A stretch of DNA of 64,000 bases. Origin: Chaetoderma sp. LZ-2023a. Its lineage: Eukaryota; Mollusca; Caudofoveata; Chaetodermatida; Chaetodermatidae. The notes under the pieces are model-generated. The model was not told the origin of the DNA and made no database searches. It worked only from the letters and a program-made list of their open reading frames with translations. Of the stretch, positions 4,641-57,440 are shown in pieces. Each line of letters opens with the position of its first letter. Positions within the stretch are counted from its first letter, which is position 1. The stretch covers positions 105,255,387 through 105,319,386 of the forward strand of contig CM067370.1 in NCBI GenBank assembly GCA_034401795.1, given 5' to 3'. The position numbers and the translations under genes were made by a program.

Positions 4641-4752
4641 AAGGCCAGTAATTTTATTGGCAAAATAGACTAAAGACTTAAGTTAGCACCTGAATGTCTG
4701 AGTGAAGTCTAGTTAATCATATTAATACTTAAATCACATGTACTCAGTGTGT

Positions 4753-5437
4753 ATTAAAGATGTTGTGAGGACTAGATACCTGATCGCGCTGATTAACTTG
4801 AAATCATAATACAGATTCTCCTTTACTAGAACAAAATGATTTTTAAATTTTTGTAATCGCCCCAGCCAAAGCTGAGATAAGCATATAGCAACCACCTTGA
4901 CAACCAAACATTTTTGGCTATCGCGCTAGATTTGTGACGTCACACCGGGATGACACCAATTCCTATTAGTCTAGATTATTATCTTGGGGAGCATAGCTAG
5001 GCTCTCTACTGCTGCACGTATTAGGCACCTATGCAACTATTCTTTGATAATTCATTGTTCACACAGGGACACTACATTGTTAGAGATGCACAAAGGTTCA
5101 ATAATATCGAAGTTGATGATATTTTTGTTGATTAAACTTAAAGGACAGACCTCATGGTCACGGTGCCTAACATCACAATTCTAATGTATAGGCCTGTTAG
5201 AGGTGACAGTAACATCGGATTTCGTGTACGTGAATTAGGCTATATTTAATCAAACCCACCCACAAACTTCTTGGAATACAATTCTACAAATGCATATATA
5301 TCTTATCTTTCTGGATTGACTGTAGAGATTTTGCATAGATGATAGGCATGCATGTACACAAATGTACAACTTTTTAAATGATAGTTAAGTAGGCCTACAC
5401 CGTTCAGTGCACATATGGTCGCGATTTACCATTGTGT
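4753..5437 (+). repeat. Dispersed ~690 bp repeat, copy 1
   Basis: This block is collinear and closely similar to 63031-63727 in the same orientation, about 58 kb away. Shared landmarks are 'TGTTGTGAGGACTAGATACC', 'CCCAGCCAAAGCTGAGATAA', 'GACGTCACACCGGGATGACA' and 'GATAGTTAAGTAGGCCTACA'. Terminal inverted repeats, a poly(A) tail and coding sequence were not found, so its class is unknown. The short ORF at 4984-5184 is not preserved as a gene-like frame. Confidence 0.85.
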
Positions 5438-7159: not shown

Positions 7160-8401
7160 CTATATGTGCAGTTTGGCACCTCCGCTCCTAATTGCATCTT
7201 TGGCTGATCCATCTGTGTAGATCCTTATCCATGTCTCCTGAGGGTACATTTCTTCCAGCATGGCTAGGGTCAGGGTCTTCTTGCTCACATCACTGTGTTC
7301 ATCTTTGGTTGTGAGATGAAGTACTGTGGTGCGAATAGCTATGCTCTCTAGTTTGTTTTCCCATGGTGGAGGATCAAAGGTGTGGTTTGGGTCTTCTATT
7401 TGTGCTGGCAACATTTCTTGGTGTTTCCTTTGAAGCGCTTTTGTCTCTTTCACAAAACTTGATCTTTTAAGTCTTCCTGATGACAGCTGTGCTTGCCTGA
7501 TCTTCATCGGGTGGTTGTTGAACGATTTGAACTTTGCAGCTTGGATCAGTGCTTTGCATTCCCTTCCTTTGCTAAGTGGGGGGATGCCTGCTGTCTGCTC
7601 CATTTTTTGTATTGATGTTGATCTCATTCCACCAGTGATGATGCGCAGTGCCTGGTTTTGTACTCTGTCGAGGTTCTGTTGATGAGATTTAGCTGCTGGC
7701 ATCCATGAGCTGGATCCATACTCAAGGTGTGGTCGTACGGCACCTAGGTAGATGGTCTTGAGGATCCTTTCATTGGCACCCCACTTTGTTCCTGCCAGCT
7801 TCCTCATGATGTTTAGCTTTCCTCTGGCCTTTGCCTCTGCATTCTGGATGTGCTCCTTCCATGTTAATCTTCTGTCATAGGTGACTCCCAGGTATGTCTG
7901 CTGGTCCTCATACTCGAGTGGAGTACCGCCCAGTGTCAGATTGCCAACCTTGGTTTTGGTGGACAGTGAGAATAATATGGCTGATGATTTTTCTTTGTTG
8001 ATGGTAATACACCAGCGATTGGCCCAAGCTGTAATTCTGTCCAAGGCATTCTGCATTCTGTACGTGGCAGTCGTTGTGTACTCCTCGGTGCACCAGAGTA
8101 CGAGGTCATCTGCATAGAGGGCTGCTTGGATCCCATTGGGCAGCTCTGCTACAATGTGGTTAATGAAGAGTATGAACAGAGTTGGTGATAATACTCCGCT
8201 TTGTGGCACCCCTTGTCTCAGCAATACATTCTGTCCAGATTGTCCATCCACCAGCACCCTAGCTCTGCGATTGTGTAGGTATGACTTGGCCCATCGGAAC
8301 ATGTTGCCACCGATGCCTGTGCGCCGGAGCTTCACGAGGAGGCCATCCTTCCACACCTTGTCAAATGCCTTCTGCAGATCGATAAAGGCAGCTAGCATCA
8401 C
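7160..8401 (-). pseudogene. LINE reverse transcriptase palm/thumb and start of RNase H
   Basis: A 413-residue open frame. It begins with 'AAFIDLQKAFDKVWKDGLL' (RT motif A, catalytic Asp), has 'QGVPQSGVLSPTLFILFIN' (motif B) and 'ALYADDLVLW' near residue 95 (motif C, YADD with two catalytic Asp). 'YLGVTYDRRLTWKEHIQNAE' (thumb) and a long connector follow. Near residue 395 the first RNase H motif 'IRIYTDGSA' appears, then the frame is lost at 7160. It is the longest open piece of this element, but the frame is broken on both sides. Confidence 0.92.
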
Positions 8402-8488
8402 CGTCTTGGCTTGAAAAGTGTCGTCTATGACCTGTGCAAGATGTGTTGTTTGATCTTCTGTGCTCCTGTATCTTCTGAAGCCGGCCTG

Positions 8489-23679: not shown

Positions 23680-25320
23680 GTCTGGTCAGTGCTCCATGTA
23701 TGTGGTACTTGATCATCTTGTCTGCTCAGTGATTGATGCACGATGACCTTATCTGTGGCCAATAAATGACACACCTAGTGCTTGATGACCTTAACTGGTC
23801 AGTGACACATCCAATGCATGATGACCTAGTTTGTGGTCAGTCCTCATTACACCTAGTGCTTGGTGATCTAGTGTGTGAGCAGTGCTTGTTACACCTAGTG
23901 CTTGACGACCTAGTTTGTGCTCAGTGCTCGATACACCTAGTGCTTATGACCTAGTTTGTGATCAGTGCTCGATACACATAGTGCTTGATGACCTAGTGTG
24001 TGAGCAGTGCTTGATACACCTAGTGTGTGATGGTTTAGTCTTGTCAGTGCTCAATACACATAGTGCTTGATGACCTAGTTTGTGGTCAGTGCTCGATACA
24101 CCTAGTGCTTGATGACCTAGTTTGTGGTCAGTGCTCGATATACCTAGTGCTTGTGACCTAGTTTGTGATCAGTGTTCGATACACATAGTGCTTGATGACC
24201 TAGTGTGTGAGCAGTGCTTGATACACCTAGTGCGTGATGATCTAGTCTTGTCAGTACTCAATACACCTAGTGCTTGATACACCTAGTGCTTGATGACCTA
24301 GTTTGTGGTCAGTGCTCGATACACCTAGTGCTTGGGACCTAATTTGTGATCAGTGCTCGATACACCTAGTGCTTAGGACCTAGTTTGTGATCAGTTCTCG
24401 ATACACCTAGGGCTTGATGACTTAGTGTGTGAGCAGTGCTTGATACACCTAGTGCTTGATGATCTAGTCTTGTCAGTGCTCAATACACCTAGTGCTTGAT
24501 GATCTAGTGTATGAGCAGTGCTTGATACACCCAGTGCTTGATGACCTAGTTTGTCATTAGTGCTCGATACACCTAGTGCTTGATAACCTAGTGTGTGAGC
24601 AGTGCTTGATACACCTGGTGCTTGATGATCTAGTGTGTGATCAGTGCTCGATACACCTAGTGCGTGATGACCTAGTGGGTGGTCAGCGCCCAATATACTT
24701 AGTGCTTGACCTAGTGGGTGTCAGTGCTCGATACACCTAGTGCGAGATGACCTAGTTTGTGATCAGTGCTCGATAACCTATTGCTTGATAATCTAATCTG
24801 TGGTCAGTGCTCGTTATACCTAGTGCTGTGTGACCTAGTCTCTGGTCAGTGAAGAAAGAGTTAGTGCTTGCTGACCTACTGTGATCAGTACTCGATACAT
24901 CGAGTGCTTGCTGACCTTGTCTGTTGGCAGTGCTGAATATACCTGGTGCTTGACGACCAGGTCTCTGGTTACTGAAGAAAGACCTAGTGCTTGATGATGT
25001 AGGTTGTGTTCAATGCTCAATAGCCTATTGCCTGATGACCTAGTTTGTGGTCAGTGCTCGATACACCTAGTGCTTAATGACGTAGTTTATCATGAGTGCT
25101 CAATGCACCTCGTGCTAGCTGACCTAGTTTGTGGTCAATGTTCAATATGCCGAGTGCTTGATGATCTAGTCTGTGGTGAGTGCTCGATACACCTTTTGTC
25201 TTAGTGCATGATGGCATAGATTGTGGCCACTTCTCAATACACCTTCTGCTTGATGATCTAATTTGTGGTCAGTGCTCAATACACCTAGTACTTGATGACT
25301 TATGGTCTTTGGTCAGTACC
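23680..25320. repeat. Minisatellite, 42 bp unit, about 38 copies
   Basis: The unit reads approximately AGTGCTCGATACACCTAGTG followed by CTTGATGACCTAGTTTGTGG and TC. Units diverge by substitutions and small deletions, and higher-order alternation of TTGTGGTCAG and TGTGAGCAG variants is visible. As 42 is a multiple of three, spurious ORFs on both strands run through it with repeats such as 'HLVLDDLVC'; these are artefacts. There are no spacers as in a CRISPR array. Confidence 0.95.
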
Positions 25321-26599: not shown

Positions 26600-26614
26600 A
26601 TTAAGGTATGTATA

Positions 26615-26800
26615 TTATATCAGAACAGAGGGTGGTGGTAGCTGTGGATCGCCGATCGGCGGCTACAGGAGGGAGGTGGGCCCACGAGGTGGTGGGAGCC
26701 AACTGTTGTAGACTGTTTTATATCGGTGGTAGCTGCGGATTGCCGATCGGCAGCTACAGAAGGGAGGTGGGCTATCAGAACAGAGGGACGGCTGGCTGCG
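26615..26800. repeat. Imperfect direct repeats (~50 bp)
   Basis: A segment with 'GGTGGTAGCTG.GGAT.GCC' and 'GATCGGC.GCTACAG' then 'GGGAGGTGGGC' occurs at about 26632-26681 and again at 26724-26773. 'TATCAGAACAGAGGG' occurs at about 26618 and 26775. ORFs in three frames cross this region; none is convincing. It marks the left part of the virus-like block. Confidence 0.75.
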
Positions 26801-27351
26801 ATGTGTTTCACAACGTAGGACCCACCGGGGGGTCCCAGTGGGGCCCCCATCCATTGTTCAGACCATGCCAGGCAAATACAAAACTTCCATTTAGACCTAT
26901 GACATCATAAATTTATTCACGCCAGGCAAGTACAAAGCTTCTACTACAAACTGTACTAAACTACAGGTTTACTCAGAAGGTTCCAAACCATGGATATACG
27001 CAATCACAATAAGTTCACATATGAGGTGTATTACAACGTAGGGCCCACCAGGACCCCTCACAGCGAGCCACACATTCCAGCACCATACAGGAAGCCCAAA
27101 GCAGAGACACGCCTGCACCCATACAGGAAGCCCAAAGCAGATACACCTGCACAAGAATCTCACAGATGAGGCGCTCGACCTCATCTTCGTCTGCCTCATT
27201 GATGATATTACTCTAAAATAAAAAATCTAGCAACACATTTATTTTGGTTCGATAGCGTCATCCATATTGATACTGTGGATCGTTAGCAGATGATCTAAAT
27301 ACTGTTTTGGTTCTGTCATTGCCATTGCTGTCAGTGGATAGCATCTGACCC
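26800..27351. other. Left part of the block, no supported gene
   Basis: A second imperfect repeat is seen: 'ACAACGTAGGACCCACCGGG' near 26811 and 'ACAACGTAGGGCCCACCAGG' near 27034. Plus-strand reading of 27000-27150 is proline-rich ('PAPYRKPKAETRLHPYRKPK'), based on a 27 bp duplication (ATACAGGAAGCCCAAAGCAG, twice). It may be part of a lost gene, but no start or stable frame was found. Confidence 0.4.
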
Positions 27352-27555
27352 CTAACTCGACGCCTGGGGGGTGGGGTTTCGGGCGAGTACCTCGTCTAAT
27401 ACTATTGCGAATGATAGGTCAGGAGAAGCTCTCCAGAACTCAAGTGATTTTTTTGCATAGTCGCTCAGGTCATGTAATGATCTTGTCACTTTTTCCCGCC
27501 GTGCCACACAGCCTACACCATGCATGTAACTCCATAGTTCTTCGGGGTAACCCAT
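27352..27555 (-). CDS. Hypothetical protein, 67 aa
   Basis: A small minus-strand ORF beginning MGYPEELWSYMHGVGCVARR with a charged middle and no membrane segment or known motif. It is the leftmost plausible gene of the virus-like block and has the same strand as the next two genes. Support is limited to its length, its composition and its context; it could be a chance frame. Confidence 0.3.
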   Translation of the reverse strand: MGYPEELWSYMHGVGCVARREKVTRSLHDLSDYAKKSLEFWRASPDLSFAIVLDEVLARNPTPQASS

Positions 27556-27669
27556 GATTGAGTTTCAGATTCAGTTACCTTGATTGATTGAGAGATTCTG
27601 TTACCTATACAGTTGTGTTTCTCTAATAGGGCACCACCTGGTGGTGGGAGCCCGTTCTAAAACACTTAT

Positions 27670-27775
27670 TAACTACTGATGATAATGATAGACATAATGC
27701 TGATGATGATGATAAACATAATGCTGATGATGATGATAGACATAATGCTGATGATGATGATAGACCTAATATTGG
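27670..27775. repeat. Tandem repeat, 24 bp unit, about 4 copies
   Basis: The unit is TGATGATGATGATAGACATA followed by ATGC. The minus-strand reading gives an 8-residue repeat 'LSSSSALC', which explains the ORF at 27623-27847; that ORF is not taken as a gene. Confidence 0.9.
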
Positions 27776-27827
27776 ATCACAAATACATGCCCACCCAGCC
27801 TCATGTCTCCATATCAAACAAACTGAA

Positions 27828-28226
27828 TCAAACAAATATGAAGTCATGACCAGTGTGACATCGGCATGAGGGGATTACCCACAGACCCTTCCAGCTGCCT
27901 TGGCAATGCTCACTTGGCAGAATGCCAAAGTGCCTACCATCTGTACCATGGCAGACTCTGGCATGTTCACAGGTGACACAGAGGATCTGGTGTTGTAGCG
28001 AGAACCGCAGCCGCAGACAACCATGTCCACACCTTTCTACACCATAGAAGTGGCAGACAGACTCAATTTCCTCACGTGGGTGAAATCGGTCGTAGATATT
28101 TTTCCGCAGATCGTCGTGGAAGGGATTGGACTGGGGCTCGTCTCGGAAGTGGGCCCACTTGGCATCTAATATCATGGCTGTCTGTGAGGCAGCCACCACA
28201 GGTATGAGCAGTAGTATAACCAGCAT
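27828..28226 (-). CDS. Predicted secreted or membrane-anchored Cys/His-rich protein
   Basis: A 132-residue ORF on the minus strand. It begins MLVILLLIPVVAASQ, a good signal peptide with cleavage likely after VAAS. The mature part has 'ILDAKWAHFRDEPQSNPFHD' and a dense Cys/His region (about residues 58-95: C-H, C-G-H-G-C, C-V-T-C, C-H) that could bind metal or form disulfides. The last 30 residues may be out of the original frame. It is the second minus-strand gene of the block, about 130 bp downstream of the larger gene 28359-29215. No family was recognised. A secreted or envelope-associated role is only inference. Confidence 0.45.
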   Translation of the reverse strand: MLVILLLIPVVAASQTAMILDAKWAHFRDEPQSNPFHDDLRKNIYDRFHPREEIESVCHFYGVERCGHGCLRLRFSLQHQILCVTCEHARVCHGTDGRHFGILPSEHCQGSWKGLWVIPSCRCHTGHDFIFV

Positions 28227-28358
28227 CCTATATATGGAGGGTTAAACTGAACCAGGTGAACCCCTCGAGAAATATCTGTGTCATATCGAGCCCTGTGCTG
28301 TCTTCGATGCCGATCGTCATGCCTTCATGCTTTCAGGGGCAGGTCTTAGCTGCTTCAC

Positions 28359-29210
28359 TTACCACCAGCTAGAAGCCGCAGGTCTAGCACAATATGGGTT
28401 GTTTGCGGACTTGTGAGCCCGACACGCTTGAGCAGCTTCACTGAGCCCTTCACGTTCGAGGAGTGCGACACCCTCTATCTGCAGGATGCCATCCTGAATA
28501 TTGATGGCTTCCTCTGGTCCATCAAAGGGGTGATGCAGCAGGAGCTTTCCTCCAGTGACCCCAATTCTATAACCCACTGCAACTAGGGTTGAGCCGTGTC
28601 CTATATAGGTCAGGAAAGATGGCCCCCGGTTATAAAGCTTCCGGACCATGCCATCTTTCTTCACAATGGGGGAGAGTGGGGTGACCTCCAGGTCAATAAT
28701 AGCTGGAGGCCTATATAGTGGCACCCACGTTTGCCAGTTACCACCAGGTCCAGTGCAATACCACACCGCATTCTTTTCGAAGACTACCTGCAGCTGTTTC
28801 GCCAGGGCCAACACCACACCATCATTTGACATCGGTGGGGCATGCTTCACAGTCAGCTCTAAGACATGAAAGCTGAGGTCAGCATCCAAGGTGTTAACAT
28901 CCTCAACCGTGTCTAGTGACTGCTCTATCAGGGGGTGGAGGATGAACTTATTCTTCGGGAAGTCATGGCGGAACACTATTTTGTCTCCATCCCTCTCTCG
29001 ACCCAGACGTTCCTTCGAGACATCCTTTAGGTCAGTGAGCAGCTCTACACCATCTCCACCGACGGGATGGAGGGAGAATGTCTTGAGTCTGCTCCATATT
29101 GGAGGACGAACAACCTGCCATCGCTTTCCTTGACCTTGACGGCATCAACGTTGTACATGTCCACGAGATCAGCTAGACTGGTTGAGTGAGAAAATATGGG
29201 CTCCATTGTG

Positions 29211-29215
<5 letters not shown>
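28359..29215 (-). pseudogene. Virus-like block gene, about 290 aa, one frameshift
   Basis: The minus strand encodes a protein starting MEPIFSHSTSLADLVDMYNV (start near 29212). The frame is lost near 29046 and resumes in another frame, running to a stop at 28359. The long second part includes 'FILHPLIEQSLDTVEDVNTL', 'VWYCTGPGGNWQTWVPLYRP' and 'GKLLLHHPFDGPEEAINIQD', which look like beta-strand-rich globular sequence. The coding nature is supported by continuity across the frameshift: both sides read cleanly and there are no stops in over 200 codons. No known fold was identified; a capsid or minor structural protein is possible but unproven. It is divergent from the plus-strand genes that start at 29288, so a bidirectional promoter would lie between 29215 and 29288. 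Confidence 0.55.

Positions 29216-29254
<39 letters not shown>
29214..29254. repeat. (TA)n microsatellite
   Basis: About 20 TA dinucleotides lie between the divergent minus gene (start near 29212) and plus gene (start 29288). It may have expanded from an AT-rich divergent promoter. ORFs reading IYIYIY through it are artefacts. Confidence 0.95.
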
Positions 29255-29257
<3 letters not shown>

Positions 29258-29287
29258 TTTAAACGGAGTGTATATATATTTATAGCC

Positions 29288-29671
29288 ATGCCGATTGTCC
29301 AATTGCTACTCCAAAAAGGGGAGAATGTCATCAGACCATCTCTAGTTGGTAGACATGCTGTTCGGTATCGCATTGAATGGGTTCTCTTCAAGGTAGCTCA
29401 GCATTCCACCACATACGTACATGCCAATGTGTTACATCTGCCACCTGGAATTACCTACCACAGTTCACTGACTGAAGTAGGGTTAGACGTGATAGAATAT
29501 CTGCCAGGAGCCAGCAGCAAAATGTGGAAAGCGATCAGCCCCAACAGGTTCACCCACATTAATCACATGTATGACAGCTCGACCATTAGTTTATATGGAA
29601 GCATGGATGGTCTGTCAGATGCCCAATTAGAGTTTATGCCGCTGCTACATATTTACCTATCATCATCATGA
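29288..29671 (+). CDS. Hypothetical protein, 127 aa, beta-rich
   Basis: The start is taken at ATG 29288 (after the TA repeat), giving MPIVQLLLQKGENVIRPSLV and continuing 'HAVRYRIEWVLFKVAQHSTT', 'NVLHLPPGITYHSSLTEVGL' and 'DSSTISLYGSMDGLSDAQLE'. Alternating hydrophobic residues suggest a compact beta fold, reminiscent of small single jelly-roll virion proteins, but I cannot assign one. The stop overlaps the next gene's start by 4 bp (ATGA). Frames stay open for 127 codons, so this is one of the few apparently unbroken genes in the block. It is the first gene of the rightward series. Confidence 0.5.
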   Translation: MPIVQLLLQKGENVIRPSLVGRHAVRYRIEWVLFKVAQHSTTYVHANVLHLPPGITYHSSLTEVGLDVIEYLPGASSKMWKAISPNRFTHINHMYDSSTISLYGSMDGLSDAQLEFMPLLHIYLSSS

Positions 29672-30165
29672 CGATGACGATATCATATCAGACCTATCAG
29701 GCATTCGCCAAGTTGTGGAAAAGGGAGATAGAGGAGCCACACACTTTCTCCGGGATGGCAGATATAGCGGTACAGGAAATGCGCTGTCGACAAGAAGGCG
29801 AGCGACTGCAGCAGGTGAGCTGGTATGAACAGAATGCTAGAGAGGCAAGGAGACGAAGGGACTACAACTCTGTCCAAGAATGGGAGAGCCTCATCCAGGA
29901 AGAGGAGGGTGTTGTAGGGCCAAACTTATATGATTACTTGGATGATGAGTGTGATGAGTCTGTAGAAGTCTTGCGGTGGGAAGAGGAGAAGTATAAATCC
30001 AAAAAATTCCACCAACGACGGGTGTACTATCAGAGTGACAAGATGAAGTTCCAGATGTCACGGCAGCGAAAGCAACTGGCACCTGACATTATGCTAGATG
30101 AGGGGTGTTTGAGGGAGGTATGTCTCCACACCAACAAGCTTGTTTGGTTCGGCAGGCTCTCCTAG
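29668..30165 (+). CDS. Hypothetical charged helical protein (probably frameshifted at its end)
   Basis: It begins MTMTISYQTYQAFAKLWKRE on an ATGA overlap with the upstream gene. The 165 residues are highly charged and helix-prone: 'REIEEPHTFSGMADIAVQEM', 'YEQNAREARRRRDYNSVQEW' and an acidic stretch 'YDYLDDECDESVEVLRW' followed by basic 'KSKKFHQRRVYYQS'. The last ~20 residues look foreign. In another frame the sequence continues as 'QALLDESHNDSSADPTGDAE' to a TAA at about 30228, just before the next gene, so a frameshift near 30110-30150 is likely. Acidic/basic composition would suit a nucleic-acid-associated or scaffold protein. No family was identified. Confidence 0.5.
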   Translation: MTMTISYQTYQAFAKLWKREIEEPHTFSGMADIAVQEMRCRQEGERLQQVSWYEQNAREARRRRDYNSVQEWESLIQEEEGVVGPNLYDYLDDECDESVEVLRWEEEKYKSKKFHQRRVYYQSDKMKFQMSRQRKQLAPDIMLDEGCLREVCLHTNKLVWFGRLS

Positions 30166-30241
30166 ATGAATCCCATAATGACTCATCAGCAGATCCTACA
30201 GGTGATGCAGAGCTAGCTCGCATTTAAGAACTAGGTATACC

Positions 30242-30637
30242 ATGGCTAAATCGGAGTGGCGAAAGCAGCCTGAACTATATCCCACCCTGGCAGCTGAGGA
30301 GGGTGGTACAGTCAACGGCGGGCGATATAAAACAGCCTCCAATAATCTAGCACGCATAACCACAGCTGCGGGTGTGATTGGAGCCAGTGCTGGTGTGGCC
30401 GCCATTTCCACCCTCGCTACAGTGGTGGGTGTTTTCGTCGCTATCCTGCTGTGTGGTGTGACACTTTCCGCTACTGTCCTGGCCACCGGCTTGGGGGTTG
30501 GACAGTATCAGATCACCAGGAAGCTGGAGACGCATGGTAAGTATGTAACACTGGCAAATAGCAGCCTACGGACTATCGACGAGTCTGTCAGCAAAGCTCT
30601 CGAGGATGGGCAGGTCAGTGATACCACCATATATTGA
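30242..30637 (+). CDS. Predicted membrane protein, 131 aa, truncated by a stop
   Basis: It begins MAKSEWRKQPELYPTLAAEE. Two hydrophobic helices follow at about residues 38-60 and 62-86 ('AGVIGASAGVAAISTLATVV' and 'AILLCGVTLSATVLATGLGV'), a helical-hairpin membrane topology. Then comes a soluble coil 'KYVTLANSSLRTIDESVSKA' and 'LEDGQVSDTTIY'. After the TGA the same frame stays open for about 35 more codons to 30746 and looks coding ('RQQYLKGSSGWVDMEELKNE'), so the TGA is probably a mutation or readthrough site. I have an impression, from memory only, that the 'SKALEDGQVSD' type of tail occurs in unannotated cnidarian and mollusc proteins. Confidence 0.55.
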   Translation: MAKSEWRKQPELYPTLAAEEGGTVNGGRYKTASNNLARITTAAGVIGASAGVAAISTLATVVGVFVAILLCGVTLSATVLATGLGVGQYQITRKLETHGKYVTLANSSLRTIDESVSKALEDGQVSDTTIY

Positions 30638-30811
30638 CGCTCCAAACCCTGTACTGCACAGAAACCTAAAGTGCGCCAGCAATACCTCAAAGGCTCCAGC
30701 GGGTGGGTGGACATGGAGGAGTTAAAAAATGAGATGCTGCGGTAGGGCCGCATTGAAGATCTCTGGTGTCAAATAGTATGTTGCGTCCGTGGCTGGAACA
30801 GCAGCTTTAAG

Positions 30812-32117
30812 ATGACTGCTATAGATGGCCTTCCCGACGAACCTCACAACCAGACCCTCCTGGGTACACTCTGGACCCGCTCGAGAGCTGAAATACGTGG
30901 TTGCCTGGATGACATATCGGACCTAATCCCGATCTCCATTACGGTCGACGTGCGGTCCCGCATCAGCTTCTTCAATCTGGGACCACTGATCAACCTCGCA
31001 ATCACCATCAAGGATGCGAAGAAAGCTCTTAGCTGGATGGCAGGCCCGAATCTCGTTCTGGAACCAACAGCTGAACTTTGCCATGTGGTGTGCCACAGCA
31101 GGATGCGGCATCGGTGCGGGTTTGCTGCACTCCTATTCTGGTACCCCCGAAGCTGTGCTCATTGCCAGCTGTCTCAGATTCCATGTGTACTACACAGTGA
31201 GATGAATCCTCCATGAGCTGGGCGCAAGCCTGCCTGATATGAAATTATTTTGATCCGCAGCCTGTCGGCACCGCTAGCTACAGCCTCTCAGCAGCCAGTA
31301 GACTCGAGCGAGAGTTCAATGCCCACTCAGACTATCGTTTCCATGGTGGAGACAACAGTGGTCTAGGCGTTATGTGTGGCAACCCGAGACGAGACGACTC
31401 AGGCTTCCCCTATCAAACACCCCAACAAAATCGGCTGTCGGAAGACAGCGACGTTCTTATTCGATCCAGACTCGGAGCCCGGGGCACTGATGCAGAATAC
31501 GCATACCACCGGAATCAGGCAGGACCATCCAGAGGCGGGGAAAAACATTGTCCCACACACAAGCTCATGGCTCACACCAGCAGGGATTGTTCAAATCAAC
31601 CAGTCCTTAGAAGCATTATGTTATTGTCTCCTGACAGCCCAGACCAAGCTGCGCTATTCCATAGATGGGGTGAGTGGAAAAGAGGTGCAGGCCATGGTCA
31701 GAAGCCTTGTTGAGGACATGATCATTGTTGCAGATCCCAGTAGCCTCATTGCCAAGTTCCAGCAAACCTTACAGAAGGCTGTCGCAAGCTCGACTATATC
31801 GCCACACCTATGACCTTCTGAGCAATATGATCGTGAACGTTGAGGGTCTGAAGATTAGGGGCTACAATAGCACGATAGTCGAGGGGAATTCCCCAGGTAT
31901 GCACTTTGGGTTTAACACTGACATCAATTCGGCCGCGCATGTCGTCCCGATGCCCATGACACCTAGGTCCCTATGGTCTCCTACGAGGGCAAGTGCTACC
32001 GTCATTCCAACTGTCATTCCGACCACTGGAACAGTAGGAGTGCTGGACGACAAACGGCGACCCGTGCTGACACCCACCACCCCGCCCAGCAGTGCTAGCA
32101 GGATGATAGCCCTATGA
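30812..32117 (+). pseudogene. Large virus-like block protein (at least 3 frameshifts)
   Basis: This is probably one gene split into frames. Frame 2 runs from 30812 (MTAIDGLPDEPHNQ), then frame 3 contains 'QQLNFAMWCATAGCGIGAGL' and 'ASCLRFHVYYTVRRILHELG' (about 31050-31230). After stops, 31376-31813 contains 'TPAGIVQINQSLEALCYCLL', and a third frame carries 'NMIVNVEGLKIRGYNSTIVE' and 'GMHFGFNTDINSAA' up to 32117, ending in a Pro/Thr-rich tail. The reconstructed length would be over 400 residues, the biggest in the block. The segments look like one conserved globular protein; I have an uncertain impression of similar unannotated proteins in cnidarians. Its size and position make it a candidate major virion protein, but no fold was recognised. 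I did not join the frames. Confidence 0.5.
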
Positions 32118-32230
32118 GTAGTGTCAGGTCTGGCTATTGCTGTGCTTATCACCAGTCTTCTCCACCATGAGTAGATCCTGCTCGTAGAGCAATAGATCAC
32201 CCTGACGCTCTTCCGGTGCGGGAGTCATGG
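31900..32230 (-). other. Possible antisense membrane-protein ORF, uncertain
   Basis: On the minus strand an ORF starts at 32228 (MTPAPEERQGDLLLYEQDLL) and stops after about 37 codons. Another frame continues with a hydrophobic stretch 'AIILLALLGGVVGVSTG' and 'VGMTVGMTVALALVG'. It overlaps the Pro/Thr-rich tail of the plus-strand gene. Either strand could be the real gene in 31.95-32.1 kb; both are reported. Confidence 0.3.
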
Positions 32231-32365
32231 CAAATGAGGTTGCCTGAAATAGCTTGGCCTGGCAGACAGCCCCCAAACACGCTGTCAGCATACACACCCA
32301 AGGACTACGGTTCGGTGGTACAGCCTTTTTCCTGCTTGTAATAGTGCAGAGCCTTGTTCAACTCA

Positions 32366-32640
32366 AGAGTCGGGGGATGCCATGGATGCCTGCAACTGCT
32401 GGAACATGTCCGATAGATACTCCCGATCCTTGTAGCATCCCTTAGTACACAGGAGCTGCTCTACAATACTGCCTCCCATAATGAGGTATTCGACGAAGCA
32501 GATCTGCCCCTTACCAAATCCTAGGTAGCGTTTCACATCTGTCAGCTCTGCTAACTCGGCGTTAGAGAGCCGGGCGAGCTCATCTGATGACTTCTTCTTA
32601 TAGTCGGCAGTTCGGTGCAGACAACATCATAGTACCTAGT
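32366..32640 (-). pseudogene. Hypothetical helical protein, minus strand, no start codon
   Basis: A minus-strand frame open for about 85 codons, ending at a TGA near 32366 and bounded upstream by a TGA near 32636, without an ATG at its beginning. It reads 'DELARLSNAELAELTDVKRY', then 'LGFGKGQICFVEYLIMGGSI' and 'CYKDREYLSDMFQQLQASMA'. The amphipathic helices and absence of low complexity suggest real former coding sequence. The upstream part must be missing or out of frame. No family was recognised. Confidence 0.4.
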
Positions 32641-32674
32641 ACATAGTACTAGTAGGTCCATGGTTTAAGCCGCT

Positions 32675-32914
32675 ATGTATAGTGCTATGGATATTCCCGT
32701 GTACCAATCTAAGCAGCTGACAGATGCAGACTGGTTAGAGCTGCTTAGCGCTCTCAAGGTAGAATGTACACATTTAAACGTGTTGTATACTCAGGGCTTA
32801 AATGATGGCGTCAACGATACAGATTGTAAAGCAACTCCCGGAGAGCCAGGCGAGTCTCCAGAAGGTGGAGAAGCTGCTCAAAAGCAAGACCCAGAAGCTA
32901 CTGACACAGGCTAA
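32675..32914 (+). CDS. Hypothetical protein, about 79 aa
   Basis: The in-frame start MYSAMDIPVYQSKQLTDADW could be at codon 1 or at M5. The first ~45 residues ('LLSALKVECTHLNVLYTQGL') look like a small amphipathic domain; the last 35 are Gly/Glu/Pro-rich ('PGEPGESPEGGEAAQKQDPE') and are the shadow of the overlapping gene that starts at 32802. The true gene may therefore have ended near 32800. Confidence 0.4.
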   Translation: MYSAMDIPVYQSKQLTDADWLELLSALKVECTHLNVLYTQGLNDGVNDTDCKATPGEPGESPEGGEAAQKQDPEATDTG

Positions 32915-33171
32915 GCCCCTGGCCATTCATGTCGCCAGTAACGTGGCTGCGAATGTGGCCGTGGTGAAGATGACAGGTGGTAATGAGGTTATTCCTGCTG
33001 CTGGAGCCGCTGTCCTCGCTACAGTGGCGAGTACGGTTGTCGACCACTGTCTAGGAATAACATCCCGTCCCAAAGATCGCCATCGGTGGCACCTCATATG
33101 CTGTTGCCGCCAAGATCATGGGCGAATGCATCCCTCTAATGGAAGCCGCGGTTCTAGGGTGAGCGACGAGT
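32802..33171 (+). pseudogene. Predicted membrane protein, one frameshift
   Basis: It starts MMASTIQIVKQLPESQASLQ in an overlap with the previous ORF. A basic helical region 'KVEKLLKSKTQKLLTQAKPL' is followed by a hydrophobic segment 'VIPAAGAAVLATVASTVVDH'. Near 33065 the frame shifts. In the next frame 'KIAIGGTSYAVAAKIMGECI' and 'PLMEAAVLG' follow, with a stop at about 33170, so the original protein was about 120 residues. The helix-plus-membrane layout resembles other small proteins in this block. No family was recognised. Confidence 0.45.
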
Positions 33172-33267
33172 GCTATGGCCAAGATTATCGTGGCCTATGT
33201 CTAGCTTTAAGATGCTATATATAATGGAAGCTTGGCAGGTCCATGACACAACAGTATCTTGTTAGGT

Positions 33268-33552
33268 ATGGCAGGCTATGTCAGAGTCAGTAGCGCATAG
33301 TCAACCACATGGACTGAGGATTTCCAATTCCCCGAAATGGTGGTTAGCCCAGGGAAGGCCAGGATCCTGAGCACTGCTACCTATTTCCTTGGCCAACCGC
33401 ATGGTCGACCTATGCCCACCTATTCCACTGGAGATATAACTAGGTTTAAGACCTATGTATACACCAACAATGTCTCTGTCACTCACAGACCTAGAAAGTC
33501 AGGAGCTAGGTGGTCTCGCTCACTTGGGCGAGGCACGCCTCGGTTCAGATGA
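33268..33552 (+). pseudogene. Hypothetical protein with an in-frame stop
   Basis: The frame starts MAGYVRVSSA at 33268, meets a TAG after ten codons, and continues 'STTWTEDFQFPEMVVSPGKA', 'RILSTATYFLGQPHGRPMPT' and 'YSTGDITRFKTYVYTNN'. It then overlaps the next gene (start 33470), and the end of the frame is that gene's shadow. It was probably a protein of about 70-75 residues with one nonsense mutation. No family was recognised. Confidence 0.4.
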
Positions 33553-33947
33553 GGCTGTTGCCTCCATCTCCTTCCTAGACTTCGATGAGAATGGAGAACC
33601 TCGAGAGATCCGATGTTCCATCCCAGCTAAAGATCTCATCGGAAACACTGACACGGAAGGATACAAGGCCAAGACTGTATACAAGGGGATGGGCAGTGAT
33701 GCTCGGTATGCTCGGGGTCGATGAGGCTGGTGCCATCAAGGTTATGGCCGAGTCCTACGTACAGGACCTGGTTACGGATCTCCTGAAACCACCGAGCTCA
33801 TTCCAACAAGATGGTGAGGATCTCGAGGTAGGCACCATCAGCCTGAGCCATATCACGGTTGATGGCCAAGCGAATGCAACAGCAAAGCTCCAACTACCCG
33901 AGGTGAAGAAGTCGGGATTCTTTGGCCTGCCATTTAAGATCACTTAA
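33470..33947 (+). pseudogene. Hypothetical protein, about 155 aa, one frameshift
   Basis: The start is ATG 33470 (MSLSLTDLESQELGGLAHLG). The first frame reads 'AVASISFLDFDENGEPREIR' to about 33700. A frameshift then leads into 'LGVDEAGAIKVMAESYVQDL', 'DLEVGTISLSHITVDGQANA' and 'KKSGFFGLPFKIT', with a stop at 33947. Both halves have beta-rich, acidic, globular character. It ends 5 bp before the next ATG (33953), consistent with tight packing. No family was recognised. Confidence 0.5.
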
Positions 33948-33952
33948 TAAGT

Positions 33953-34240
33953 ATGGCTGCTCGAGCTTGCATCATACGGATACTCGAGGTGCTAGACACT
34001 GCGGGCACTGAAACAGGCCCTCTGCATTACCTTCTCAGCTGTTGTTGGGATTTCATGCTTGATGCCTCTATCGCATCCTTCATATCCGCCAGCGGTACAA
34101 TGCTACCCACAGAGCAGGCAAAAGAACTGGTACAGGAAGTACTGCTATTTAATCTCCCAGATATAGACGAGGCTATGGCTGTAGAGCTGCTGATCATCCT
34201 TCACGCACACGTGCGACATGTCAGCGCCATACAGCAGTAG
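33953..34240 (+). CDS. Hypothetical all-helical protein, 95 aa
   Basis: It reads MAARACIIRILEVLDTAGTE, then 'HYLLSCCWDFMLDASIASFI' and 'DEAMAVELLIILHAHVRHVS'. The sequence is leucine/alanine-rich and amphipathic with no obvious membrane-spanning helix. The frame is unbroken. Its last 23 bp overlap the start of the ATPase-like gene, suggesting a shared transcript and coupled arrangement. No family was recognised. Confidence 0.5.
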   Translation: MAARACIIRILEVLDTAGTETGPLHYLLSCCWDFMLDASIASFISASGTMLPTEQAKELVQEVLLFNLPDIDEAMAVELLIILHAHVRHVSAIQQ

Positions 34241-34784
34241 ACCAATTGATGCCGGTCAGGTGGTGCTAATCATTGTCCCATCAGGACATGGGGAAAACAT
34301 CTTGCTGCGGCCCCTGCTCGCCGAACATCTTCAGTCTCGATACATCCTCTTGGTGTCCGACCCCGCGATGGACCAGAAGACAGTCACATACCTCAGCAAC
34401 ATCACCACACGCATTCGGCACACCAAGATCACTGTCTTCATCCTCTTTCAGAAGTACACCTGTGAGATATCGACAGATATCCAGCACAATGCGAGGCTCC
34501 TGTACTTTAGCTCGAAGAGTGGTCATGCCCTGCTTGAGACGATATACGGCGGCCTGACCCTAAAGGAGACCAAGCAAGACTTCATTGCAGGCGTGCAGAA
34601 GGTCGCAGATCTATACCTCTTCATCTTCAGCAACAAGGAGACAGGTGAGCTGTCCCGCTTCAAGCCTTCTCTGGAGAAAGCAGAAAACTTCAGCTACAAG
34701 CTGGATCCTGCCAGGAAGATAATGTGGAAGCTGAGCCGCGACAGTAGTAGTAGCGGCGGGGACGGAACTTTGTCAGAAACTTGA
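34218..34784 (+). pseudogene. Decayed packaging-ATPase-like protein (FtsK/HerA-A32 type)
   Basis: A 188-residue ORF. Near residue 18 is 'VPSGHGENILLRPLLAEH', shaped like a Walker A P-loop (GxxGxGK[ST]) but with Glu replacing the Lys. 'ILLVSDPAMD' resembles a Walker B strand plus acidic end, and 'IRHTKITVFILFQKYTCEIS' with 'DIQHNARLLYFSSK' matches the helix and sensor region of viral genome-packaging ATPases (H..I.V..L.QKY...I..N). Between P-loop and Walker B only about 15 residues remain, against roughly 80-100 in the family, so a segment is missing. Such ATPases pump DNA into capsids in Polintons, virophages and large DNA viruses. With the catalytic Lys lost and the deletion, it is not functional. 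The assignment rests on motifs only. Confidence 0.45.
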
Positions 34785-34905
34785 GGAACTTCGTCAGAAG
34801 CTTGAGGAACTTGGTCAGTGGTCTCCGCTACTTGAGGAACGTCGTTAGGAGCTTGAGAAACTTCGTCAGATGCTTGAGGAACTGTGCCATCTTCTTGAGA
34901 ATGCT
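34763..34905 (+). repeat. 21 bp tandem repeat encoding heptads
   Basis: About six imperfect copies of CTTGAGGAACTTCGTCAGAA plus G. In one plus-strand frame it encodes LEELRQK heptads, a leucine-zipper-like coiled coil. It overlaps the end of the ATPase-like ORF in a different frame, so it may be the original C-terminal extension displaced by a frameshift, or a separate repeat. Confidence 0.75.
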
Positions 34906-34926
34906 TCTGAAACTATCCATTGAGGA

Positions 34927-35643
34927 TCAAATGCCGCGACTATTCTTCTGAAACTTCTCGCGGAAGACACACTTCAGCCATGCCCTCTTAGCATTTGCCT
35001 TGAAGCAACATTTGATGAGGTAGTCCTGGTAGTTCTCGGCGGGGAATATTCTAAATGCTGCCTGATTTCTTGCCAGCCGCTCGCGCCCTCTTTGGTTGAA
35101 GATGTGCTCGTCGGCCTCCTTGTGGCCGGCAGCTAACCCCTCCTCTCTACCTTCAGTGTGACCAGTGGCATGCGCAGCCTCATGGCCCTCAGTCACGTCT
35201 GCACCAATCTCCTCTCGGAAGTAATCTATGGCCCCAGCCTGTATAGCATCCAGTGTTTATCATGAGTGTGGAGGCTGAATACACCAGGCCACTTCCCGAC
35301 CATTAGTAGATCTTTGGGATCAACCCTAGCCTTCTGGAGAGCTAGAATTACAGGACTTAGTGGGTGCCCTGGGGAGATCTAGTGACCTGCCCTGGGCGCT
35401 GTTAAGCTTCCGTTAGAGTGTCCGAGTCAGGAGTTCCTTTGTACTGCGGGCCGGCGTGGTCTCTATGGCAGTCGGTATCTCCGCATCAGACGGAGGCGGG
35501 ACCTTGGCTCACTCGTGGATAATGTTGACGTCACGAAGTAGTCGTTGGACCCTGTCAATCGGCAGCTGTACTGGTTTCTTCTTGGAGGGTTGCACTGGTT
35601 TCTGCCCTCCAAAGACGATCTGCTGGAGAACTTTACCAAACAT
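34927..35643 (-). pseudogene. Minus-strand gene of the virus-like block, about 230 aa, broken
   Basis: The start is at ATG 35643-35641 (MFGKVLQQIVFGGQKPVQPS, then a basic 'KKKPVQLPIDRVQRLLRDVN'). A TGA follows after about 44 codons, with more stops and at least two frameshifts to 34927. Recognisable pieces include 'KARVDPKDLLMVGKWPGVFS', 'ENYQDYLIKCCFKANAKRAW' and 'GHEAAHATGHTEGREEGLAA', a His/Glu/Gly repeat region. It converges on the plus-strand series and marks the right end of the block. I considered an adenain-like protease because of 'THDKHWMLY', but the other catalytic residues were not seen. Confidence 0.4.
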
Positions 35644-35655
35644 CACCGTTTAAAA

Positions 35656-36277
35656 ACCTGTATATTCAGAGACAGGTCATACAATGACAAAAACTACAGG
35701 TGGTTGTCTTCTAAAATGGTTTAAGACAACACCCACATCCCACGTGCTGGTGTAAGTTTGAAAACTTTTTACAAATCTTCGATTAACTTGTCTTCATCTC
35801 CAATACTGCCCCCATTATCAACGGTATTGAAGACAATGCACTCCTAACAAAATGGCTAATTGCCGCCACCAATCTCTCGACAGTCTCGGTCATAGCTGAC
35901 ATTGAGTTTTTTAAATCTGTAAATTCACAACATGAGGTGACTCCATATTAATGGTAGTCCCTGTGTTCGCTCAACTATTAGATGAGTCTCTGTTCTTAGA
36001 ATGAGACGATTCGCACTTCTTATAAGCATCATTGCTTTGTTTTTCATTGCTCATGCCGTCATTCTCGATCATCATAGAAGACTCGCTATATTCTAAAGCC
36101 TTTGACAAACTATCCAAGATGCTGACACAGTCAGATTCCGAGCATCATTCAGAGATCATCATGACCAAACAAATTAATTAATCCGAACTTAGCACTGACA
36201 GTTACAAAACTACTTTTTACGCTCAAATTTCCCAATCAAAGACGATTTTTCTAACCAAAACTGTATCACAACATCTT
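35656..36277. other. AT-rich spacer between virus-like block and PLE
   Basis: No gene was recognised. A stretch 'GGTTTAAGACAACACCCACA' followed by TCCCAC (35722-35747) is close to 'GGTTTAGAACAACACGCACA' followed by TCCCAC at 59463-59488, just beyond the second PLE fragment. The meaning is unclear. Confidence 0.45.
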
Positions 36278-37537: not shown

Positions 37538-38826
37538 ATGGCTGCCATTGCAAGAAGCAGTTCTGGTGTATCGGTCGATTCAACAGAAACTATTATCAAT
37601 CTTTTTGAGAAAAACGAAATCCAGGGACGTGAATGTGCACCTAGCAGAAAGAGAACTCGTCCGGATAGTGACACAAACATGAGTGTTCCTTTAGACAATT
37701 CAAACGCTAACTTACATGAAAATCCCAGGAAACGACCTGAGATTCCTGAGACACACCTCCCTGCGTACAAATTTTGGAGGAATAGTGCCTGTCGACAAAC
37801 ACGAGCGGCATTCGAAGAATCACTAAGCCGTGATGTTATTCCTGGACCATTAGTTATATCAGTTCGTTTCACACCACCTAGTGACGATCTAGAACTTTCA
37901 AAACTATGGGAGAAAAAAATGTGTGACATTAACTTACAACTAACCGTGCACGCCATTGATTTACTGCGTAACCGTGCTGACAAACTCAGAGGTTACTAGA
38001 AAACATAAAGCGAATTTCCTTCTGGCTGTGGAAAGCGAAACTGTGTTTTAAGAAGCAGAGCAAGCTGTCCGCAACACCATTATGCGCACACGGGAAAGAT
38101 CTGCGAGTCCACCCAAATGAGCGAGGGGACCGTCCCTGCAACAAGGCAGACCCAACAGGGGAAGGAAACAACAAGGTCCACCGAAACAGCAAAACCAACA
38201 GAAACGTGTCGAAAAATGAAATACATGCAGACCAAACAGAAGTCCAAATCGATCCAGAAACAGAACACAGGTAAATGGCCAAGGGAGGAACAAGACACTC
38301 AACGCAGTGTGCAAACTTTTGGAACCATTAACATAAACTATGTTACTGTTAATTATGTGACAACTTTGTCCGATATATTGAATTTAAATATGTTCCTCCA
38401 ATATAAAATTGACCATCCTGTTGTAAACAAACCATTTGTAGTCAATCTTTCATCATGGGCCATTTCCCAAACATTAAGGAGTACCCTTGACTGTGGACTA
38501 GGCTTTAGTCCCACTATCATTGAGCCAAACATGGGCCAACTGTATAAAGACCTCACTAGATTCTTTAGAAGACTCAGATTGAAACTCCACTTCCAACACC
38601 CACCATATCTTGGGAACGATTCATCCATAGATGTCGCTGAAACTACCGTCACAACACAATCTGACAATTTCTGCAACAAACTGTCAAAGAAATTTAAACC
38701 ATCTAGTCTATGGACACCACGTCCAGGCAATGACGCTACGCTAGATGCGTTCATTAGAGCAGTCAAATCTGCTCTGGTCAATTCCAAACATGGAGATCCA
38801 AATCGGACAACCTTTCCAAACTACTA
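37538..38826 (+). pseudogene. PLE 1 main ORF, N-terminal region
   Basis: ATG 37538 (AAGATGG context; MAAIARSSSGVSVDSTETII) is preferred to the in-frame 37511. The frame runs to a stop at 37999 and, after two stops, stays open in the same frame to 38826. It has 'EKKMCDINLQLTVHAIDLLR', a basic linker and 'VVNLSSWAISQTLRSTLDCG' then 'LGFSPTIIEPNMGQLYKDLT', the conserved N-terminal PLE block ('L..GL.F.P') before the RT. A frameshift near 38805 separates it from the RT frame. It is inactive. Confidence 0.8.
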
Positions 38827-39807
38827 AGGAAAGAACGTACACTATTAGCAGATGACAAAACTATAGTCATCAAAAAAGCTGACAAAGGTCAGGCCACTGT
38901 CATACAGGACTCAACTGCCTACAACACAGAGGCATTAAGACAGCTAAATGACCAACAATTCTACCATGAACAGGACACTGAACTCACTGCCCAACACTCT
39001 GAAAAAGTAGAAACAGCCATAACCTCTATGGTGCTAAATGGCGAAATCACCACTGATATCGCAAATGGTCTAAGAATTGACAAACCCAGAAGCTCGAGAT
39101 TCTACCTATTGCCAAAAATACACAAGACAAAGGATGGTACATCCATCCCAGGTAGACTAATCATAAGTGGCAACGGCAACCCCACTGAACACATCAGTAG
39201 TTTTGTTGATGAACACATCAAAATTCATCTATCAAAAATGACGTCATACGTCAGGGACACCACTGATTTCATAAACAAGCTTGAATCATATGGTGTCCTA
39301 CCAGAGAATGCTCTTCTCGTCACAAGGGATGTCACATCTCTATACACGAATATCCCAAACGAGGAGGGGATTAGAGCTACAGCGAAATTCATCGGGGCCA
39401 ATGGCACCCCGGGCCAGGCCAGCCCGAGGTCGGTATTGTCCTTGTTGAAAATCGTTCTGACATGCAACAACTTCACTTTCAACAATAAGCATTACCTCCA
39501 AATTGGAGGTACAGCTATGGGTACAAAGGTAGCACCTAGCTACGCCATAATTTTCATGGCGGACCTAGAAAACAGACTACTCAGTAGCGCACCACACCAA
39601 CCTGCTATTTACCTTCGTTATATCGATGACATCTTCATACTATGGTTAGAAGGAAGGGAGAAACTGAATATGTTCATTCAACATATGAACACGTCACATG
39701 ACACTATCAAATTCACGGCTGAAATCTCATCAACAAAAGTGAGCTTTCTTGACACACTAGTTTCGATTCCAGACAAACATAACACTCCAATTCGACCTCT
39801 TCACTAA
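38810..39807 (+). pseudogene. PLE 1 reverse transcriptase
   Basis: This frame contains all PLE RT blocks: 'IVIKKADKGQATVI' (about 38870), 'FYLLPKIHKTKDGTSIPGRL', 'LVTRDVTSLYTNIPNEEGI' (motif A Asp), 'QIGGTAMGTKVAPSYAIIFM' (motif B) and 'RYIDDIFILW' (motif C, YIDD) followed by 'KVSFLDTLV'. These are characteristic of Penelope-like RTs, which are related to telomerase. The frame ends at 39807 and the coding sequence resumes in the next frame ('LQFDLFTKPTDTHGYLHYQS'). Confidence 0.95.
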
Positions 39808-40687
39808 ACCCACTGACACTCATGGGTACCTACACTACCAGTCAGCACACCCTAACTCCACCAAAGACGCCAGTCCATATGGCCAATTCCTGAGACTATG
39901 CAGAATCTTCAGCAACATCGAAGAGAAACATGCTTGTGACACAATTGCACATTACGAGAATCGTGGTTATCCCACCAATCTCCTAATAGACAGCTATAAC
40001 AAAGTCCTCCAAAAGGAGAGACTATCACTCTTAAAACCGAAAGAGAATAAAACCAAAAACCAAAGGATACCTCTCATCACAGATTACCACCCACGCAGTA
40101 TCCGTCTCAAGAAAATTATCAACCGACACTGGGATCTCCTACAAACCAGCCCCAAATGTAGGGACACATTTTCTGAGAAACCATTCTCGCGTAGAGACCA
40201 ACTAGTCCGTGCTGATTTCACCTACCCCGCTATCAAAGGATACCAGGGCAGTTTGATACCAAACAAAGTCGAACCATGCCAAAAATGAAACTGTTCTTTT
40301 TGTCACAGAATGGAGAAAGGGAAAACTTTCCAGAGCACACATACATGTTTAACATATAGATGTCACATGAAAACATACTGCTCAACTATGAATCTCTTCA
40401 CCTGTGCTGTTTGCAACAAACAATACATGGGAGAAACCAAGAGAGAATTCCAGATCCGTATCAAAGAACATTTGAGAGATGTCAACAAACATAAAGACAC
40501 ACCGGTCGCACTACATTTCAACCTGCCAGGACACGATACAAACAGTATCAGATACAGAGTCATAGAAGTTCTGCGCCACGATCCTGATAGCACTGAGGCC
40601 ACTGCCTCCAGCAAGGACCAAGAATCTTACTGGATCCACCAACTCCATACAATGGATCCTGTTGGTATTAATCACGCAGATTGGTAA
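39790..40687 (+). pseudogene. PLE 1 RT thumb/linker and GIY-YIG endonuclease
   Basis: From about 39790 the frame has 'TKPTDTHGYLHYQSAHP' and a basic linker ('PRSIRLKKIINRHWDLLQTS'), meets a stop near 40286 (after 'VEPCQK') and continues 'NCSFCHRMEKGKTFQSTHTC', a Cys-rich finger. Next is the nuclease: 'NLFTCAVCNKQYMGETKREF' (Y-M-G-E-T, the YIG block), 'RIKEHLRDV' (catalytic Arg), 'TPVALHFNLPGHD' and 'KDQESYWIHQLHTMDPVGIN' (Glu helix), ending HADW-stop at 40687. GIY-YIG nucleases nick DNA to prime PLE insertion. Coding decay makes this copy inactive. Confidence 0.92.
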
Positions 40688-56855: not shown

Positions 56856-57440
56856 TTAATTTTGAATCCAGCACATATTGGGCAAAACAAGACATAACAC
56901 CATAGTCAAGAGGCTTAAATAAATTAAAAAAACACCTAAAAGTCTCTTAGCCCAACCTGCAGTGTCTAGCACCTCTTTAGTGTCTGCCCCTTTCCTAAGA
57001 ACTGCAGAAGAAGAGGCTGCTTTACAACTATGCGGCTTAAACAAACTAGTGTCTATCCCAGCAAGAGACATAATTGACTTCAACGAACATGATATAGCAT
57101 CCCTGGACACTGGGAGATAAGGTTTGACAGTACTTATAAACAACCTAGGTGGTGAGCGTAATGATTTAGTTCTGTATATATATATACACACTAATGGTAT
57201 TAAACACGCACAAACGTTTGATAAACTGAGAATATAAGCCTGTTCTACCTTTTCAGGTCTAGCCCGTTTAAAGTTCCCTATTAGTCAGAACATGGTTCTA
57301 TCGTCTTCCTTATGCAAAAAGACTATGTCCAATAAATGTAATGATTGGTACCTCTGAGTGGATACTAGAGCCATCAGCATGGCGTCTGAGACTTGAAATT
57401 ATAGAAAGAAAAATTCTGCCATAAGTTGAGCTATCCTTAA
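56856..57440 (-). pseudogene. Tyrosine recombinase relic (DIRS- or Crypton-like)
   Basis: On the minus strand the distal half of a tyrosine recombinase is visible. The first frame has 'DAMLMALVSTQRYQSLHLLD' (first catalytic Arg), then a TGA after 'DDRTMF' and 'NFKRARPEKVEQAYILSL'. The 57191-56856 frame has 'RSPPRLFISTVKPYLPVSRD', 'SLAGIDTSLFKPHSCKAASS' (His, with Lys in place of the usual Arg) and 'EVLDTAGWAKRLLG' (AGW motif before the catalytic Tyr, which is not seen). Such recombinases integrate DIRS-like retroelements and Cryptons. The stop, frameshift and lost catalytic residue make it inactive. It lies next to the PLE 2 tail. Confidence 0.75.

What the first reader, a model, noticed from the sequence alone, without database searches (positions are those of the whole stretch)
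26600..35655. Gene-dense, GC-richer virus-like block inside a liprin-alpha intron: possible undescribed element class
At least ten small ORFs are packed with overlaps and short gaps, with divergent genes at 29.2 kb and convergent genes at 34.9 kb, in contrast to the ORF-poor AT-rich intron around them. One ORF resembles a packaging ATPase, three have membrane segments and one a signal peptide. No polymerase, integrase, protease or Polinton-type capsid motif was recognised. The combination is what an endogenised small dsDNA virus or a degraded virus-derived transposon would look like, but it fits no family I can name.
Basis: partly seen in the sequence, partly recalled or inferred. Interest (0 to 1): 0.9.

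Follow-up and report, generated by a model that had tools for sequence, protein, structure and literature searches.

The report
Truncated fossil Polinton (Maverick) copy
The gene-dense block is the left part of one dead, cut-off copy of a virus-derived mobile element of the known Polinton/Maverick kind, with thousands of decayed relatives in the same animal genome; it is not a new class of element.

Summary
In detail: 26.62-35.67 kb is a GC-richer block (0.50 against 0.36-0.37) with more open frames than chance (17 of >=100 aa, 6.9 expected, 0 of 200 shuffles reach 17). "Undescribed class" does not hold. The block is one copy of a high-copy repeat, cut off on its right at about 35670; none of 39 other scored copies matches beyond that break. 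Four copies followed rightwards run on for about 5.6-7.3 kb, and there encode a retrovirus-like integrase (rve) and family-B DNA polymerase pieces. The "packaging ATPase" is real: a sibling's open piece passes Pfam's Pox_A32 cut-off; the window's copy has lost about 45 residues and matches nothing. One copy followed end to end is 15.59 kb. Ends are AGTAGT//ACTACT inverted repeats; 5-bp target duplications are exact in 8 of 10 pairs. That is a Polinton/Maverick. Lower bounds: 2862 ATPase and 1251 integrase word sites, controls 0. Thousands of Maverick copies are already in print for a bivalve. Capsid genes and protease were not confirmed. A left-end segment occurs in both orientations among copies, cause open. 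New family, known kind, low interest.

The parts
26620..35670 (+). Right-truncated Polinton/Maverick copy
   Evidence: collinear copies; right break not shared by 39 other scored copies
26620..27640 (.). Left-end unit; begins with the decayed inner part of the terminal repeat (TCAGAACAGAGGG at 26620), outermost ~20 bp not recognisable
27831..28241 (-). Open frame, function unknown; also open or partly open in sibling copies
   Evidence: no Pfam match above cut-off
28362..29144 (-). Open frame of 261 aa, longest of the block; function unknown
   Evidence: siblings in alignment A1
29288..29671 (+). Open frame, function unknown
29668..30165 (+). Open frame, function unknown
30242..30637 (+). Open frame, function unknown (hydrophobic by eye)
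30746..32114 (+). Remains of a longer gene in several frames; capsid candidate by position and size only (guess)
   Evidence: no family match
32366..32626 (-). Open piece, function unknown; a 167-aa open piece lies at the matching place of copy L047
32802..33224 (+). Open frame, function unknown
33440..33947 (+). Two overlapping pieces of one gene, function unknown
33938..34240 (+). Open frame, function unknown
34194..34784 (+). Packaging-ATPase remnant, about 45 residues shorter than its relative P0001
   Evidence: Pox_A32 match of sibling pieces, none for the window's own frame; comparison with P0001; 36 of 39 other scored copies carry 97-138 bases more at this place
34930..35256 (-). Open frame, function unknown; longer open pieces in siblings

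Best explanation
The block is the left part of a dead, right-truncated copy of a Polinton/Maverick, a virus-like self-synthesising mobile element. Sibling copies encode an integrase, a family-B DNA polymerase, a packaging ATPase and several small proteins between inverted repeats. By analogy with Polintons, the polymerase copies the linear element, the ATPase and capsid proteins package it, and the integrase inserts it, leaving a 5-bp target duplication. Shown here: gene pieces, ends, target duplications, copy number. Inferred from the family: protein-primed replication, packaging, any virion. This copy cannot move by itself: integrase, polymerase and right end are absent and its ATPase has lost its middle.
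For: Collinear copies; private right break; rve (E 8.9e-5; 1.3e-4), DNA_pol_B_2 (E 8.6e-5), Endonuclease_7 (E 3.9e-5, 23.9 bits against cut-off 23.6), PHROGs DNA polymerase (E 9e-5) and Pox_A32 (E 4.2e-5, 23.6 bits against cut-off 22.8); terminal 34-mer 168 sites, control 0; 5-bp duplications exact in 8 of 10 pairs; one copy 15.59 kb end to end; codon-phase bias against a diverged relative.
Against: rve and DNA_pol_B_2 matches are below Pfam's curated cut-offs. P0001's best Pfam match is AAA_33 (E 1.4e-4), Pox_A32 only E 0.0016, all below cut-off. Capsid and protease were not recognised in 81 open pieces, where three other single weak matches (ZrgA, DUF4781, RTX) also appeared. Target duplications are 5 bp, not the 6 bp of vertebrate Mavericks. 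The fold of a penton-like candidate failed.
Confidence: 0.95

Rival explanations
1. A cluster of ordinary host genes or retrocopies.
For: Open frames and high GC.
Against: Thousands of dispersed copies with defined ends; no host gene family matched.
Confidence: 0.005
2. An undescribed class of element without polymerase and integrase.
For: The window copy alone has neither; ATPase word sites (2862) outnumber integrase word sites (1251), which could mean many copies lack the right half, though the two words need not be equally conserved.
Against: The break of the window copy is its own and collinear siblings carry both genes.
Confidence: 0.02
3. A Polinton-like virus or virophage-type element rather than a Polinton proper.
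For: Divergent proteins; no capsid recognised.
Against: It has both rve integrase and family-B polymerase with endonuclease VII motif and AGTAGT ends, the Polinton combination.
Confidence: 0.025

Closest known systems
Polintons/Mavericks (Polintoviricetes; animal adintoviruses)
   Same: rve integrase, family-B polymerase with endonuclease VII-like zinc motif, A32-like ATPase, about 15.6 kb in the one copy followed through, AGTAGT//ACTACT inverted ends, short target duplication
   Different: Protein sequences far from anything in the collections searched; 5-bp duplication where vertebrate Mavericks have 6 bp; capsid and protease not confirmed; rearranged left end
Vertebrate Mavericks (PMC8097293)
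   Same: (AGT)2//(ACT)2 end motif, most copies defective
   Different: Average 22 and at most 287 copies per genome there (section 8 read), against more than a thousand here
Polinton-like viruses and mavirus-type virophages
   Same: Packaging ATPase, linear element with inverted repeats, integrase in some
   Different: Polinton-like viruses mostly lack polymerase and rve integrase (PMC11071308, passage)

Membership tests
Polinton/Maverick | Retroviral-type integrase (rve) | tested here: met
   sibling copies L014 and L048, E 8.9e-5 and 1.3e-4, below the curated cut-off; absent from the truncated window copy
[quoted passage not shown]
   DNA_pol_B_2 E 8.6e-5 (below cut-off), Endonuclease_7 E 3.9e-5 (above cut-off), PHROGs polymerase E 9e-5; the terminal-protein domain was not tested
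Polinton/Maverick | FtsK/A32-type packaging ATPase | tested here: met
   Pox_A32, 23.6 bits, cut-off 22.8, L014; window frame itself no match
Polinton/Maverick | Terminal inverted repeats with AG.../AGTAGT ends | tested here: met
   168 sites of the 34-mer, control 0; 9 of 10 pairs AGTAGT at both ends, the tenth AGCAGT on the right
Polinton/Maverick | 5-6 bp target site duplication (PMC8547959, passage) | tested here: met
   5 bp exact in 8 of 10 pairs, one with 1 mismatch, one without
Polinton/Maverick | Length 15-20 kb (PMC4028283, passage) | tested here: met
   15.59 kb in the one copy followed end to end; facing ends of the other 9 pairs are 6-22 kb apart, content not checked
Polinton/Maverick | Double jelly-roll major capsid and jelly-roll penton | tested here: inconclusive
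   no family match in 81 open pieces; fold of a penton-like piece at pLDDT 35.6
Polinton/Maverick | Ulp1/adenain-like cysteine protease (identifiable in 74% of Polintons, PMC4028283, passage) | tested here: inconclusive
   none among 81 open pieces at E 0.01, but the genes are broken into short pieces

The most novel reading that the evidence does not exclude
A divergent animal Polinton lineage whose left end carries a segment bounded by inverted copies of its own 27-bp terminus, which is flipped or swapped in by the element's own integration or replication chemistry, giving two interchangeable left ends, and which spread to thousands of copies in that form.
Probability: 0.1. Interest if true: 0.45.

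Novelty: new member of a known kind. Interest (0 to 1): 0.18.

Why it matters
It removes a candidate new class and shows why it looked like one: the hallmark genes are missing only because this copy is cut off. The family is a large fossil record of one animal Polinton in one genome, useful for dating an amplification and for studying how the ends of these elements rearrange.

Tried and rejected
Relatives elsewhere: five pieces against IMG/VR gave no confirmed relative (3, 12, 9, 2 and 6 pattern stretches, none confirmed by tblastn). The protein database gave one ATPase relative (P0001, 75% identical, 275 candidates) and none for a second gene (146 candidates); the third search was not used. 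PDB by sequence: no match for the window ATPase and the integrase piece, weak matches to FtsE and others for P0001 (best E 0.0041). Window frames against Pfam and PHROGs gave nothing above a cut-off. One AlphaFold job on a penton-like piece was useless (pLDDT 35.6, pTM 0.30). Codon-phase bias inside the window block against close copies is weak and mixed (max/min 1.04-2.59). Rejected: host genes; new class; see rivals. Counts for the 28.8-kb gene and the polymerase were not obtained.

Full report
What is there. The block at 26621-35670 differs from its surroundings: GC 0.503 against 0.363 and 0.369 in two flanking stretches, and 17 stop-free frames of at least 100 aa where 200 dinucleotide shuffles give 6.86 on average and never 17. 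A liprin-alpha exon within 51132-51470 matches Liprin-alpha-2 in the PDB (E 7.5e-11); exons on the other side were not looked for.

It is a repeat. A search of the same genome (2.44 Gb, 2753 contigs, unnamed) with 28359-28976 gave 2836 first-look candidates, 40 scored; the 39 besides the window are 90-92% identical. The 34218-34784 piece gave 2140 candidates, 40 scored. Fetched copies align collinearly to the window between about 26.6 and 35.67 kb, some with insertions or deletions. A query across the right edge (35540-35790; 883 candidates, 40 scored) matched 39 other copies up to 35665-35674 and none beyond: the window copy was cut there, and among those scored the cut is its own.

What lies beyond the cut. 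Four copies were followed rightwards, on C13, C9, C15 and C7; they stay alike for about 5.6 to 7.3 kb more. On C13 the element reaches an inverted copy of its left end and is 15.59 kb from end to end. The part missing from the window encodes an integrase on the plus strand (rve, E 8.9e-5 in L014 and 1.3e-4 in L048) and pieces of a family-B DNA polymerase on the minus strand (DNA_pol_B_2, E 8.6e-5; Endonuclease_7, E 3.9e-5; PHROGs DNA polymerase, E 9e-5 and endonuclease VII, E 5.5e-6). rve and DNA_pol_B_2 stay below Pfam's curated cut-offs; Endonuclease_7 is just above. In a scan of 81 open pieces (of 137 listed) two matched rve, two DNA_pol_B_2, two Pox_A32, one Endonuclease_7, and one each the unrelated ZrgA, DUF4781 and RTX, at E 0.01 or better.

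The ATPase. L014's open piece matches Pox_A32 with 23.6 bits against a cut-off of 22.8; L047's has 21.5 bits. P0001, a 220-aa JGI metagenome protein 75% identical to L047's piece, matches AAA_33 best (E 1.4e-4) and Pox_A32 at E 0.0016, below the cut-offs. The window's own frame matches nothing: against P0001 it lacks about 45 residues with the putative Walker B strand (motif name recalled). Of 39 other scored copies 36 have 97-138 bases there that the window lacks.

Ends and target sites. The terminal 34-mer has 97 forward and 71 reverse sites with up to 3 mismatches, control 0. I picked by eye 10 facing pairs, 6 to 22 kb apart, from the places listed. In 9 both ends read AGTAGT; in one the right end reads AGCAGT. 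Flanking 5-bp duplications are exact in 8, differ by one base in 1 and are absent in 1. Maverick/Polinton duplications are given as 5-6 bp in PMC8547959 (passages seen), as 6 bp for rve integrases in PMC12220804 (passages seen) and 6 bp for vertebrates, whose ends are (AG)3//(CT)3 or (AGT)2//(ACT)2, in PMC8097293 (passages seen). The two ends of the C13 copy are 85% alike over 92 bp, so that copy looks old.

Copy number and age. One 26-mer in the integrase has 1251 sites and one in the ATPase 2862, up to 3 mismatches, controls 0. The words need not be equally conserved, so their ratio does not measure truncation. The median identity to the window copy of 88 aligned stretches is 85.7%; stretches under 150 bases or under 78% identity were dropped before that count, and some loci are the same copy fetched twice, so true divergence is higher. 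Vertebrate Mavericks average 22 copies, the largest number printed being 287 (PMC8097293, section 8 read). A table row of the Mercenaria mercenaria genome paper gives Maverick 1.69, 7091, 31,368,848 and 1.93, 6453, 34,529,082, which I read as percent, copies and bases; the column heads were not seen (PMC8905726, passages). Thousands of copies are therefore not new among animals.

Coding. Between L014 and a diverged relative in L019 (66% identical) some stretches show substitutions mainly at one codon position, for example 0.16, 0.52, 0.16, while others are flat, for example 0.32, 0.30, 0.30. Inside the window block, against close copies, the bias is weak.

What was not shown. Neither capsid protein nor protease was recognised. 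The gene at 30.75-32.11 kb is broken in the window and in the copies looked at; by position and size it may be a capsid gene, which is a guess. The fold of L018:3806-4471 had mean pLDDT 35.6 and says nothing. Replication, packaging and virions are inferred from the family (PMC11071308 and PMC4028283, passages seen).

Mechanism. In Polintons the polymerase copies the linear element, capsid proteins and ATPase package it, and the integrase inserts it with a short duplication. The copy in the window was inserted long ago, lost its right part at about 35670 and decayed; it has no means of moving.

A left-end oddity. In four distinct copies (L009/L002, L013, L045, L047) the terminal sequence occurs again, inverted, about 950 bp inside the left end; in L009 and L013 it is 27 bp with at most one mismatch. 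It was not found in the window copy. Of 12 distinct copies that hold both this unit and the adjoining body, 6 have unit sequence in the window's orientation (L002/L009, L008, L013, L045, L047, L051) and 6 in the opposite one (L003, L005, L015, L017, L050, L054). The opposite ones match only about 90-270 bp of the unit, so simple flipping is not shown; a rearranged or separately added end fits as well.

Verdict. Observation confirmed; a Polinton/Maverick copy; a family not identified in the collections searched, of a known kind; low interest.

Noticed in passing
window 24000-25316: Tandem array with a 42-bp period; 21 copies reported in register, some overlapping.
   Followed up: no
window 7163-8488 (-): Reverse transcriptase frame of a retrotransposon (RVT_1, E 3.2e-28).
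   Followed up: partly
window 38758-40684 (+): Reverse transcriptase (RVT_1, E 7.6e-9) followed by a GIY-YIG-like piece (E 5.3e-4, below cut-off): by layout a Penelope-like element (name inferred).
   Followed up: partly
window 60601-61629 (+): Tc1/mariner-type transposase, open over 343 aa (HTH_Tnp_Tc3_2 E 4e-17, DDE_3 E 1.2e-11).
   Followed up: partly
window 56859-57284 (-): Weak tyrosine-recombinase match (Phage_integrase, E 0.0015, below cut-off).
   Followed up: no
L013:3961-4911, L009:4211-5165 and the loci: Left-end unit of the Polinton bounded by inverted copies of its terminus; unit sequence in both orientations among 12 distinct copies (6 and 6).
   Followed up: partly
L019:4415-7974: A second, diverged relative (66-73% identical) lies in opposite orientation about 1.2 kb beyond the C13 copy.
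   Followed up: partly
L018:1242-1766 and 3706-5011: A copy with large internal deletions and an insertion: 30421 is followed after about 150 bases by 35368 of the window's numbering.
   Followed up: no
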